Below are positions 5,722-8,743 of a stretch of DNA of 50,033 bases, one piece after another. Numbering within the stretch: the first letter of the stretch is position 1; every line of letters starts with the position of its first letter. The notes beneath the pieces were generated by a model. It had not been told where the DNA came from. It saw nothing but the letters and a program-made list of their open reading frames with translations, and ran no database searches. This DNA comes from a virus, in the IMG/VR virus record IMGVR_UViG_3300043399_001084, positions 1 through 50,033 of that record. One strand, written 5' to 3'. A program made the translations under genes and the position numbers.

Positions 5722-6915
5722 ATGACGACAGAAAACAAACTTAATCATTGTTCTTTTTGCGGGAACCATAAGGATGTAGTTAAAAAACTTATAGTAGGTG
5801 ATGACGTAGCTATATGCAGCGATTGTATCGACCTATGTAATACGCTCATCAAAGATGACAAGGTTGATGATTCTACTACTCAATCTGGTGTCAATGATCC
5901 CGTTTTAGTAAAACAATACTTAGATGACCACGTAATAGGGCAAGATCATGCTAAAATGATTTTGAGCGTAGCAATTACTAATCACTATAAGCGCATAAAC
6001 AATCCCCCAAAAGACCTAGAAATACAAAAAGGTAATGTGCTCCTTTTAGGTCCTACTGGATCAGGTAAAACATTATTAGCTAAAACTGTAGCAAAGTATC
6101 TCAATGTTCCTTTTGTGGTTGCCGATGCCACTTCATTGACTGAAGCAGGTTATGTGGGTGATGACGTTGAAAGCATGATTAGTATGCTATTAAACGCGGC
6201 TAACGGTGATGCAAAATTAGCTGAACGCGGTATCGTATTCATCGATGAAATTGATAAAATTGCTAGAAAAAGCGAATCAACAAGTATTACCCGAGACGTT
6301 TCAGGTGAAGGCGTACAACAAGCATTACTAAAACTAGTTGAAGGAACTACATGTAGAGTACCTTCTACAGGTGGCAGAAAACATCCCAGCGGAGATATGG
6401 TTGAGATTAATACAAAAAACATATTGTTTATTGCTGGTGGAGCATTTGTGGGTTTAGGTGAAATTGTTGAAAGCAGATTGCGTGGTACTAACATTGGATT
6501 CGGAGCAGAAGTAAAAAGTAAATTAGACTATGATCTAAGTGATGTCACACCTGATGATCTTACAAAATTTGGTATGATTCCTGAACTAATTGGTAGATTT
6601 ACTACGGTAGTGAGTTTGGATAAATTAACTAAAGAAGATTTGGTGCAAGTTTTGACTGAGGTAAAAAACAACTACATAGATCAATATAAGTATTTGTTTA
6701 GTTTAGACGATATTCAACTAGTTATAGATAAATCTGCAATTGATGAAATCGCAGAAAAATGTCTGAGGTTGAAAACAGGTGCCCGAGGATTGCATACTGA
6801 GATAGAGCGAGCTTTATTGCCACATATGTTCAATGTACGTAAATATGTAGAAAAAAACATTGGCAAGATAAATATAAGCAGAGAAGAAATTCTCAATCCT
6901 AAACCATTTATTTGA
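5722..6915 (+). CDS. clpX: ATP-dependent Clp protease unfoldase subunit ClpX
   Basis: 397 aa, close to the bacterial length (E. coli 424). All hallmarks are present: N-terminal zinc domain (C10, C13, C32, C35), Walker A GPTGSGKT (110-117), pore loop GYVG (143-146), Walker B VFIDEID (172-178), and the IGF loop (NIGFGAE) that docks on ClpP. It should therefore be an active AAA+ unfoldase able to pair with a ClpP, either the host's or the one encoded at 11305. Known: ClpX unfolds tagged proteins and feeds them to ClpP. No Shine-Dalgarno is visible; TATAAT abuts the ATG. It is followed 6 bases later by the bS21 gene. Confidence 0.96.
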   Translation: MTTENKLNHCSFCGNHKDVVKKLIVGDDVAICSDCIDLCNTLIKDDKVDDSTTQSGVNDPVLVKQYLDDHVIGQDHAKMILSVAITNHYKRINNPPKDLEIQKGNVLLLGPTGSGKTLLAKTVAKYLNVPFVVADATSLTEAGYVGDDVESMISMLLNAANGDAKLAERGIVFIDEIDKIARKSESTSITRDVSGEGVQQALLKLVEGTTCRVPSTGGRKHPSGDMVEINTKNILFIAGGAFVGLGEIVESRLRGTNIGFGAEVKSKLDYDLSDVTPDDLTKFGMIPELIGRFTTVVSLDKLTKEDLVQVLTEVKNNYIDQYKYLFSLDDIQLVIDKSAIDEIAEKCLRLKTGARGLHTEIERALLPHMFNVRKYVEKNIGKINISREEILNPKPFI

Positions 6916-6921
6916 GGAATT

Positions 6922-7143
6922 ATGAAGTTACAAGGAAACAAAGTTTATGTAAAGGACGACAATGTTGATCGCGCTTTACGTCAATTCAAGAAAAAAGTAG
7001 CAGACTCAGGTCTACTACAAGATTTACAAGAGCGTCAAGCTTATGTAAAACCTACAATCAAGAAAAAGCTTGCAAAGGCACAGGCTAAACGTAGATGGAA
7101 AAAATATCTTAGGGATCAAGAGTTGCCCAAAAAGATGTTTTGA
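6922..7143 (+). CDS. rpsU: Small ribosomal subunit protein bS21
   Basis: 73 aa, the usual bS21 length. Matches the family pattern: VDRALRQFKKKV near the N-terminus, then the RQAYVKPT segment and a Lys/Arg-rich C-terminal helix. Start has TGAGGA about 7 bases upstream. Known: bS21 sits on the 30S platform near the anti-Shine-Dalgarno region and influences initiation; phage copies occur in some large aquatic phages. Inferred: it exchanges into host ribosomes to favour phage mRNAs, which matters here because many predicted mRNAs lack a leader. Confidence 0.93.
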   Translation: MKLQGNKVYVKDDNVDRALRQFKKKVADSGLLQDLQERQAYVKPTIKKKLAKAQAKRRWKKYLRDQELPKKMF

Positions 7144-7178
7144 TACACAAAATCTCTTTATTTTTTACGCAAACATAG

Positions 7179-7189
7179 TATAATAAATA
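7179..7189 (+). promoter_or_regulatory. Promoter of hsp20 (TATAAT and TAAATA overlap)
   Basis: TATAAT at 7179-7184 runs into TAAATA at 7184-7189. There is no good -35 box, so the T4-late reading is preferred; it would start the mRNA at about 7195, the foot of the first leader hairpin. Confidence 0.55.
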
Positions 7190-7193
7190 AATT

Positions 7194-7248
7194 TGTAGAT
7201 GCTTCGGGTCTACACATTATGTCATTATTTGCTTAAAAGGAGGAATAA
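7194..7248 (+). promoter_or_regulatory. Leader of hsp20 with SD-sequestering hairpin (possible RNA thermometer)
   Basis: Hairpin I: TGTAGA (7194-7199) pairs with TCTACA (7209-7214) around a CTTCGG loop. Hairpin II: TTATT (7225-7229) pairs with AATAA (7244-7248); inside it TTGCT faces AGGAGG, with loop TAAA. The second hairpin buries the whole Shine-Dalgarno and ends next to the ATG. The UUGCU/AGGA pairing with an unpaired G is the core signature of ROSE-type thermometers of small heat-shock genes. Thermometer function is inference. Confidence 0.6.
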
Positions 7249-7249
7249 A

Positions 7250-7693
7250 ATGACCAAAACTTTAACATTACGTGCCTTAGACATTCCATCAGTACATAAA
7301 TTTGGTATCGGGTTTGACCGAATGTTTGATGAACTACAACGTCTAACAGAACAACAAGGCACTTATCCACCTTATAACATTATTAAAGTCAGTGACAATG
7401 AATTCACTATTGAATTAGCTGTTGCTGGATTCAGTGAGGGTGAGATTGATATTCAAGTAGAAAAAAATATTCTTACAATCAAAGGTAGTAAAATCAAAGA
7501 CATTGATGCTGCTCCCGTTGAATTCTTAGTAAAGAATATTGCTACAAGGGACTTTGAACGAGAGTTTACGCTAGCAGAATATGTAGAAGTAGTTGACGCC
7601 AGCGTTTCTAACGGAATTCTTTCAGTTTCACTAGAAAGAAAAGTACCTGAACAAGATTTACCTAAGCGTATTGCGATTACTTATAATAAATAA
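7250..7693 (+). CDS. hsp20: Small heat shock protein (Hsp20/IbpA family)
   Basis: 147 aa from the ATG at 7250, which has AGGAGG 6 bases upstream; an in-frame ATG at 7199 lies in the leader hairpin and is rejected. The alpha-crystallin domain spans about 38-130: PPYNIIK, ELAVAGFSEGEIDIQVE, LTIKG, then the insertion loop and the ASVSNGILSVSL strand; the last part carries a KRIAI motif (I-x-I type anchor). Known: ATP-independent holdase. It lies between clpX/rpsU and clpS, so a protein-quality-control cluster is plausible. Confidence 0.93.
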   Translation: MTKTLTLRALDIPSVHKFGIGFDRMFDELQRLTEQQGTYPPYNIIKVSDNEFTIELAVAGFSEGEIDIQVEKNILTIKGSKIKDIDAAPVEFLVKNIATRDFEREFTLAEYVEVVDASVSNGILSVSLERKVPEQDLPKRIAITYNK

Positions 7694-7701
7694 TATAATA
7701 A

Positions 7702-7721
7702 GGCGTGTCTCAAGGCACGCC
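7702..7721 (+). other. Strong hairpin between hsp20 and clpS
   Basis: GGCGTGTC pairs with GGCACGCC (one G-U) around a TCAA loop. No T run follows, so it is not a classic terminator; it may protect the 3' end of the hsp20 message or lower clpS expression. Confidence 0.6.
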
Positions 7722-7739
7722 ACTAACAAGTGAGATAAA

Positions 7740-8048
7740 ATGTCAAAAACAGAAATTAAACCCAAAATTGCTCCGCTAACAAATCTAAAAGAGCCATCTT
7801 TGTACAAAGTGATTTATTTCAACGATAGTGTTACCACTATGGACTTTGTTATGGGAACTCTTATAGATTATTTTGATTACAACGATGAAACTGCCCTAGC
7901 AATCACTAAAAATATTCATGAGCAAGGCAGTGCTGTGGTTGCAGTTCTACCCTATGAAATCGCAGAGCAGCGTGGAATTGAAGTTACACTTGACGCAAGA
8001 GCAAGTGGTTTCCCATTACAAGTTAAAATTGAAGCGGAAACTAATTAA
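7740..8048 (+). CDS. clpS: ClpS adaptor-like protein
   Basis: 102 aa, same size as bacterial ClpS. The core YKVIYFNDSVTTMDFV matches the ClpS motif with the N-degron pocket residues (Asn, Asp, Met) kept, and NIHEQG keeps the pocket His; the second Asp of NDD is Ser. Known: ClpS delivers N-end-rule substrates to ClpAP. No clpA is seen in the window, so the partner would be the host ClpA or, less likely, the phage ClpX. Start has AGTGAG about 6 bases upstream. It converges with the next gene with a 4-base overlap. Confidence 0.85.
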   Translation: MSKTEIKPKIAPLTNLKEPSLYKVIYFNDSVTTMDFVMGTLIDYFDYNDETALAITKNIHEQGSAVVAVLPYEIAEQRGIEVTLDARASGFPLQVKIEAETN

Positions 8049-8743
8049 ACCTCGATCGATATTCTTTTAGGCCAATAAGGTCGTTTTTTGAGGTAAGGGT
8101 TATTTATATAGTGGATATTACTAATTGTAGTATCCACTATTTTTTCATATGTGCCAAAAGCCCAACTGACAACTTTCTTTTGGGTATCAGAAGAAAGTAT
8201 AACATCTAATGATATTTCATCTTCCGCACTTTTTGGATGCTCACCAAAATATAATTGTAGTTTAGGAACTGAGCTACTTACAATCATAATTTTTTTCACA
8301 TCTAAATGCATTTGAAGTTTTTCTATAGTTGCTTGAAGATAAGCTAAATCTTCATATCTATGAACTTCATTTTGCGCTTGTTCAATAATACTGAATTTAT
8401 CTTCTAATCCATACCAGCCATTTGACCCCACTACTGCCACGCCATCCACAATTATTACATGATGATGAAGCATAGTTACACCTCTTATATCATCGCATAA
8501 TATGGCAATCTCAGCCGTTCTTTCATGTATGTTAAGAATGTTTTTATATTCTAAGAATCCAGGCGTGTAAAAGATAGCATGATAGAATCTGCCCAAATGC
8601 CTTAGAGTTTGTTCTATAGTTCTTAAATCATTGCTTATATTACCTGCAATGACGCAATATAGGCTGGTAGCCTTAGATTCCCAATTAAAAGAATCATCAG
8701 GTTCTAGATACAAATCGCTGATTAAATCAAATCCTACTGACAC
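8045..8743 (-). CDS. Metallophosphoesterase-like protein lacking the metal ligands
   Basis: 232 aa. It lines up segment by segment with the metallophosphoesterase at 20672-21511, but the metal-binding motifs are changed: DLHLEF becomes DLYLEP, SGDI becomes AGNI, GNHEFY becomes GFLEYK, VGHHAP becomes VSSSVP, and GHTH becomes GTYE. The fold pattern is kept over the whole length and the frame is open. Inferred: a catalytically dead paralogue kept for binding or a structural role. The pairing is by eye and needs a profile search. It precedes no recognisable partner. Confidence 0.7.
   Translation of the reverse strand: MSVGFDLISDLYLEPDDSFNWESKATSLYCVIAGNISNDLRTIEQTLRHLGRFYHAIFYTPGFLEYKNILNIHERTAEIAILCDDIRGVTMLHHHVIIVDGVAVVGSNGWYGLEDKFSIIEQAQNEVHRYEDLAYLQATIEKLQMHLDVKKIMIVSSSVPKLQLYFGEHPKSAEDEISLDVILSSDTQKKVVSWAFGTYEKIVDTTISNIHYINNPYLKKRPYWPKRISIEV

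What the first reader, a model, noticed from the sequence alone, without database searches (positions are those of the whole stretch)
7194..7248. Possible ROSE-like RNA thermometer before phage hsp20
Seen: hairpin II pairs TTATT with AATAA and places TTGCT against AGGAGG, with an unpaired G, next to the start codon; a CTTCGG-capped hairpin lies upstream. Known: ROSE thermometers of bacterial small heat-shock genes use UYGCU against AGGA. A thermometer in a phage would link chaperone output to host temperature.
Basis: partly seen in the sequence, partly recalled or inferred. Interest (0 to 1): 0.7.

Follow-up and report, generated by a model that had tools for sequence, protein, structure and literature searches.

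The report
Phage ROSE-type RNA heat switch
The RNA just ahead of a virus gene for a small heat-shock protein folds into the same two-hairpin "ROSE" shape that bacteria use as a heat-sensitive switch, and the same element sits ahead of heat-shock protein and DnaK genes in well over a hundred bacterial virus records, which suggests that phages control their own chaperones with it; nobody has yet tested whether it responds to heat.

Summary
The window leader (7194-7254) has an upstream hairpin with a bulged G and a second hairpin in which UUGCU faces the Shine-Dalgarno sequence. The second hairpin is longer than reported: GUCAU (7221-7225) pairs with AUGAC (7250-7254), so the start codon lies inside the stem. 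In hsp20 leaders of related phages, hairpin I is held by compensatory changes in 8 of 10 pairs and the CUUGCU/AGGAG core is almost invariant. A model built from these leaders also finds the proven two-hairpin ROSE leaders of Pseudomonas ibpA, and Rfam ROSE_3 finds about 40% of the phage records tested (E down to 1.3e-9, below the curated cut-off; the window itself is missed). Two collection-wide pattern scans land almost only on chaperone genes. The element also precedes phage dnaK (80 of 80 loci examined); none of the 80 nearest bacterial dnaK genes has it. T4-late-type promoter motifs sit at a fixed distance upstream. Heat-induced opening is untested; folding energies do not discriminate. 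A rival or partner mechanism is binding by Hsp20 itself, as in E. coli IbpA. I found no earlier report in the library searched.

The parts
7182..7189 (+). T4-late-type promoter motif AATAAATA; by the T4 late rule the RNA would start at about hairpin I
   Evidence: Sequence; ATAAATA in 45 of 57 hsp20 leaders, ending 9-11 nt before the YGC motif in 42 of those 45; the start-site rule is own knowledge of T4 late promoters
7194..7214 (+). Hairpin I: UGUAGAUGC(UUCG)GGUCUACA-type stem with U7200-G7208 wobble and bulged G7201
   Evidence: Fold; 8 of 10 pairs with double changes across relatives; RNAalifold 7 of 9 pairs
7221..7254 (+). Hairpin II: closing stem GUCAU 7221-7225 / AUGAC 7250-7254 around the ROSE core; hides SD and start codon
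   Evidence: present in most relatives
7229..7233 (+). UYGCU anti-SD motif (UUGCU) with unpaired G7231
   Evidence: UCGCU in L061/L063, S-PM2, P-TIM40, S-CAM9, Phosso
7238..7243 (+). Shine-Dalgarno AGGAGG, paired to the anti-SD motif
7250..7693 (+). hsp20 (IbpA-type small heat-shock protein, 147 aa), the regulated gene
   Evidence: carries the equivalents of the E. coli IbpA residues R93 and Y34

Best explanation
A ROSE-type 5' leader of a T4-like phage chaperone gene. A late promoter starts the transcript at hairpin I, a stable stem with a bulged-G motif that is likely to protect or help fold the leader. Hairpin II pairs the SD with a UYGCU anti-SD (one bulged G) and, in hsp20 leaders, clamps the start codon with GUCAU/AUGAC, so translation is low while the hairpin is closed. 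The loose, bulged hairpin opens when temperature rises, releasing SD and AUG and boosting Hsp20, and in related phages DnaK through the same element. Shown here: the structure, its conservation, its gene linkage and its likeness to proven ROSE leaders. Inferred: start site, translational repression, and opening by heat.
For: Covariation of hairpin I. Core 99.4% paired and near-invariant, with only the unpaired position changed to A in 9 of 80 dnaK leaders. The phage-built model R1 finds hsp20 leaders of ten isolated phages of cyanobacteria, Pelagibacter, Methylophilales and rhizobia, E 4.9e-10 to 0.067, and all 13 Pseudomonas ibpA leaders tested. Rfam ROSE_3, full length, matches 22 of 54 phage records at E <= 1.4e-4 (searches of 14 and 41 records, leaving out the bacterial-looking Y7 record), at the hsp20 leader where checked. 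Linkage: 71 of 80 and 65 of 71 pattern matches across IMG/VR precede hsp20, dnaK or a small ORF directly followed by hsp20; the rest look intragenic. In Pseudomonas the two-hairpin ROSE melts at hairpin II and keeps hairpin I closed (PMC3669281). Predicted hairpin II stability is similar: median -5.2 kcal/mol at 37 C (window -7.2) against -5.9 for the Pseudomonas-type leader.
Against: The nearest-neighbour model does not predict the SD to be more hidden than in control genes of the same phages at any temperature (p 0.7-0.8); only the AUG is somewhat more hidden, p about 0.02. For the window it predicts the closing stem still formed at 50 C. All ROSE_3 matches in phages lie below the gathering score and the window has none; ROSE (RF00435) matches none, but that search had no positive control. 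The core cannot show much covariation because the SD is fixed. No transcript, melting or reporter data exist here.
Confidence: 0.68

Rival explanations
1. Protein-fed switch: the leader is mainly the binding site of the phage's own Hsp20, which represses hsp20 (and dnaK) translation until unfolded proteins titrate it away, so the phage senses aggregation and not temperature as such.
For: E. coli IbpA binds its own 5' UTR and represses translation, needing R93 and an aromatic residue at Y34 (PMC10474464). The window Hsp20 and the other ROSE-bearing phage Hsp20s have an aromatic residue in the YPPY/FPPY motif, and nearly all have an R at the R93 position (C48C1 looks shifted by one); the Vibrio phage without the leader has a different residue there. 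Hairpin I keeps a bulged-G motif although it pairs no SD, as a protein site might.
Against: The same residues are shared with IbpA proteins generally and may serve other functions. No binding data. Hairpin II alone suffices for heat control in Pseudomonas (PMC3669281).
Confidence: 0.3
2. Fixed translational tuning and mRNA protection: hairpin I is a 5' protective hairpin and hairpin II only sets a constant low-to-medium initiation rate; no signal is sensed.
For: Folding predictions show no special temperature behaviour; a 5'-terminal hairpin can stabilise mRNA (discussed in PMC3669281).
Against: The sequence-specific UYGCU core with its unpaired base, and the restriction to chaperone operons, are hard to explain by mere tuning.
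Confidence: 0.15
3. Coincidence, or sequence conservation without RNA structure.
For: The isolated hairpin II fragment is not more stable than shuffles.
Against: Compensatory changes with slid and shuffled controls, and covariance-model matches in both directions.
Confidence: 0.02

Closest known systems
ROSE_3 (Rfam RF02523), short two-hairpin ROSE of Pseudomonas ibpA (Krajewski 2013, PMC3669281)
   Same: Two hairpins; hairpin I of type GAUGCCGA..UCGGGUC; U(U/C)GCU facing the SD with a bulged G; before an IbpA-type hsp20; reciprocal model matches
   Different: Phage genomes; T4-late-type promoter instead of the sigma-32 promoter; in most hsp20 leaders the start codon is clamped by GUCAU/AUGAC (reported unpaired in Pseudomonas); AT-rich; also before dnaK; scores below the Rfam cut-off; the window itself does not match
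ROSE (Rfam RF00435), classical rhizobial ROSE1
   Same: UYGCU/AGGA core, hsp20 linkage
   Different: Three to four hairpins; no match to the phage records
Lambda cIII thermometer and SPbeta blyA fourU thermometer (PMC10586365)
   Same: RNA thermometers in phage genes
   Different: Not ROSE type, not chaperone genes, single cases; lambda cIII is from own knowledge
E. coli IbpA self-repression through the ibpA 5' UTR (PMC10474464)
   Same: Hsp20 with R93/Y34 equivalents and a ROSE-type leader
   Different: Protein-mediated; untested in phages

Membership tests
ROSE-type RNA thermometer | UYGCU anti-SD motif facing AGGA with a bulged G | tested here: met
   Window 7229-7233 / 7238-7244; near-invariant in relatives
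ROSE-type RNA thermometer | Two or more hairpins, the 3' one holding the SD | tested here: met
ROSE-type RNA thermometer | Directly upstream of a small heat-shock gene | tested here: met
ROSE_3 (RF02523) | Covariance-model score at or above the gathering score of 43 bits | tested here: not met
   Best phage score 42.6 bits (E 5.0e-9); best E 1.3e-9 at 40.8 bits; window no match
ROSE_3 (RF02523) | Statistically significant full-length match of relatives at the hsp20 leader | tested here: met
   reverse test with R1 on Pseudomonas, 13 of 13
ROSE (RF00435) | Match to the covariance model | tested here: inconclusive
   No match in 14 records, but no positive control rang
ROSE-type RNA thermometer | Heat-induced melting of the SD hairpin and heat-induced translation | not testable with these tools
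   Energy calculations inconclusive
IbpA-type self-repression | R93 and aromatic Y34 equivalents in Hsp20 | tested here: met
IbpA-type self-repression | Hsp20 binds the leader RNA | not testable with these tools
   No binding data

The most novel reading that the evidence does not exclude
Tailed phages carry their own heat-shock regulon: a shared ROSE-type leader, started by late promoters, coordinates phage Hsp20, DnaK and associated small genes, and is repressed in trans by phage Hsp20 until virion assembly or heat produces unfolded protein, so that one RNA element reads both temperature and protein aggregation.
Probability: 0.25. Interest if true: 0.88.

Novelty: new variant of a known kind. 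Interest (0 to 1): 0.72.

Why it matters
RNA thermometers known to me in phages are isolated cases of other types. A ROSE-type leader conserved across phages of very different hosts, and extended to dnaK, would mean that phages keep a dedicated post-transcriptional control of chaperones late in infection. It would make testable how temperature or protein aggregation sets phage yield, and it offers hundreds of natural ROSE variants to define how the element works. It also suggests a revised, broader Rfam ROSE model.

Tried and rejected
Rfam at gathering threshold on the window and on 12 relatives: nothing; relaxed scan of the window leader: only chance-level families. Energy-based accessibility versus temperature: the SD is not different from control genes, so it was not used as support. 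A crude melting estimate gave unrealistically high values and was dropped; only relative stabilities are quoted. ROSE_3 in 61 genomes of the family of Limnohabitans: nothing, but no control rang, so uninformative. R1 in seven bacterial genomes: only chance-level hits, and only part of the candidates were scored, so uninformative too. A groES leader with a UCGCU core (L008, L434-L436) looked promising, but it occurs in one small phage group only and the other groES loci are unrelated, so groES was not included. A sigma-70 promoter scan of the region was at chance level. Literature searches found no report of phage ROSE elements; the library lacks most subscription journals.

Full report
What the window is. 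The window is a 50,033-base virus record with T4-like features (rIIA and rIIB homologues). The leader lies in a protein-quality-control cluster: ClpX-like AAA ATPase (5722-6915), ribosomal protein bS21 (6922-7143), Hsp20 (7250-7693) and ClpS (7740-8048).

Checking the observation. Both hairpins are present. Hairpin I is UGUAGAUGC(UUCG)GGUCUACA, 7194-7214, with a U7200-G7208 wobble, bulged G7201 and C7202-G7207. Hairpin II pairs UUGCU (7229-7233) with the SD AGGAGG (7238-7243). The SD of the window, AGGAGG, offers UUGCU two AGGA partners; the relatives have one (AGGAG), and there the pairing is C-U-U-(G)-C-U against A-G-G-A-G. Single-sequence folding alone would not carry the claim: z -2.15 for the whole leader, 0.25 for the fragment 7216-7252.

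Relatives. Eighty viral loci encoding related Hsp20 were read upstream of the gene. Seventy-eight have the same leader (46 of the leaders also trained the model). The other two (L058, L072) have hsp20 directly behind dnaK and carry the element before dnaK instead. RNAalifold proposes hairpin I without help, 7 of 9 pairs having double changes. On the model-fitted alignment (69 distinct rows), 94.4% of cells pair, 11 of 20 pairs show changes on both sides, and the covariation score is 0.386 against 0.141 +/- 0.008 shuffled and at most 0.11 when slid. This alignment leans towards the structure and includes some dnaK leaders; the shuffle control ignores relatedness. The core helix is 99.4% paired but almost invariant, so its support is conservation, the U-G to C-G variant (UCGCU), and the fact that in 9 of 80 dnaK leaders only the unpaired base changes, G to A (by inspection).

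Gene linkage. A pattern for hairpin II alone, scanned through the viral collection, gave 80 shown loci: 71 precede an hsp20 gene and the other 9 look like chance matches inside genes. A pattern for hairpin I plus UCUUGCUU gave 71 further loci: 57 hsp20, 4 dnaK, 4 a small phasin-like ORF directly followed by hsp20, and 6 chance. The phasin likeness rests on a related protein (Pfam Phasin_2 E 0.0017, below cut-off).

Spread. Hsp20 leaders of isolated phages of Methylophilales (Melnitz), Pelagibacter (Mosig, HTVC008M, HTVC115P), cyanobacteria (S-PM2, S-CAM9, P-TIM40), rhizobia (Atu_ph07, Phosso) and of phage C48C1 carry it. The model R1 scores them at E 4.9e-10 to 0.067. Vibrio phage IBT_VpB-34 lacks it.

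Phage dnaK. Eighty phage dnaK loci: 71 have UYGCU before the SD and 9 have UYACU; 65 leaders are distinct. Sixty-seven have an hsp20 within 400 nt downstream and 66 of those have their own core. R1 finds most of them. The 80 nearest bacterial dnaK loci, mostly Burkholderiales, have none at E <= 0.1. The phage loci were chosen as the closest to one query, so the 80 of 80 describes that clade and not all phage dnaK genes.

Likeness to known ROSE. Rfam ROSE_3 matches phage leaders at full length, E 1.3e-9 to about 1e-4, always under the gathering score of 43 bits and not in the window itself. R1 in turn finds 13 of 13 Pseudomonas ibpA leaders (E 3.7e-6 to 0.066), whose hairpin I reads GAUGCCGA..UCGGGUU/C. 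Such leaders are experimentally proven thermometers in P. putida and P. aeruginosa: two hairpins, only hairpin II melts, hairpin II alone suffices (PMC3669281). Whether the similarity reflects common descent or convergence is not settled; the gene product is IbpA-type in both.

Transcription. ATAAATA, the T4 late promoter core (own knowledge), is present in 45 of 57 leaders and ends 9-11 nt before the YGC motif in 42 of 45. By the T4 rule the RNA then begins at about hairpin I. This is inference.

Temperature. Predicted opening of SD and AUG rises with temperature, but so it does in control genes; the SD is not more hidden than in 39 control genes of the same phages (p 0.7-0.8), the AUG somewhat more (p about 0.02). 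The Pseudomonas-type leader is likewise not predicted to open its SD at 37-42 C, so the energy model, which does not treat the non-standard pairs of the ROSE core, cannot decide.

Mechanism. Best reading: ROSE-type translational switch opened by heat. A partner or rival is feedback by Hsp20: E. coli IbpA binds its own 5' UTR through R93 (PMC10474464), and phage Hsp20s with the leader carry the matching residues in nearly all cases. The two can act together, so the confidences of the two readings overlap. Membership: ROSE-type by anatomy and by reciprocal model matches; not a formal Rfam ROSE_3 member by cut-off; thermal function untested.

Host. The phage DnaK of relatives is closest to Burkholderiales, several of them freshwater genera; in the family of Limnohabitans none of 26 genomes had an Hsp20 match at 1e-8, while 13 of 13 Pseudomonas did. 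The host of the window phage is not established.

Noticed in passing
5722-8048: Protein-quality-control cluster in a phage: ClpX-like ATPase with zinc finger, ribosomal protein bS21, Hsp20 and the adaptor ClpS in a row.
   Followed up: partly
L354-L433, about 2440-2509: Phage-encoded DnaK genes, often with hsp20 next to them, each with its own ROSE-type leader; the nearest bacterial dnaK genes lack it.
   Followed up: yes
L362, L363, L380, L385, L387, L389, L391, L411, L418, upstream of dnaK: Variant leaders with UYACU instead of UYGCU (A at the bulge position), several with an extra GGGC..GCCC hairpin.
   Followed up: partly
L219:189-229; L112:14141-14206; L466, L484, L519, L524: Phasin-like small ORFs preceded by hairpin I only (L219, L112) or by the full ROSE-type leader and followed directly by hsp20 (L466, L484, L519, L524).
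   Followed up: partly
L008:826-980; L434-L436: A ROSE-type element before a short 11-codon ORF upstream of groES, and a second UCGCU core directly before groES, in one small phage group.
   Followed up: partly
L212 (OQ572409.1, 'Pseudomonas phage Y7'): This deposited, unverified 'phage' record carries a bacterial-type ibpA with its ROSE leader (ROSE_3 69 bits) and is probably bacterial DNA.
   Followed up: no
7702-7721 and 8108-8140: Terminator-like hairpins after hsp20 (minus-strand orientation by the scan) and after clpS.
   Followed up: no
L021, L024, L026: 3475-3525: Another hairpin leader (GCGGG..CCCGC) before a ClpS gene, weak R1 score (E 0.067), probably not ROSE.
   Followed up: no
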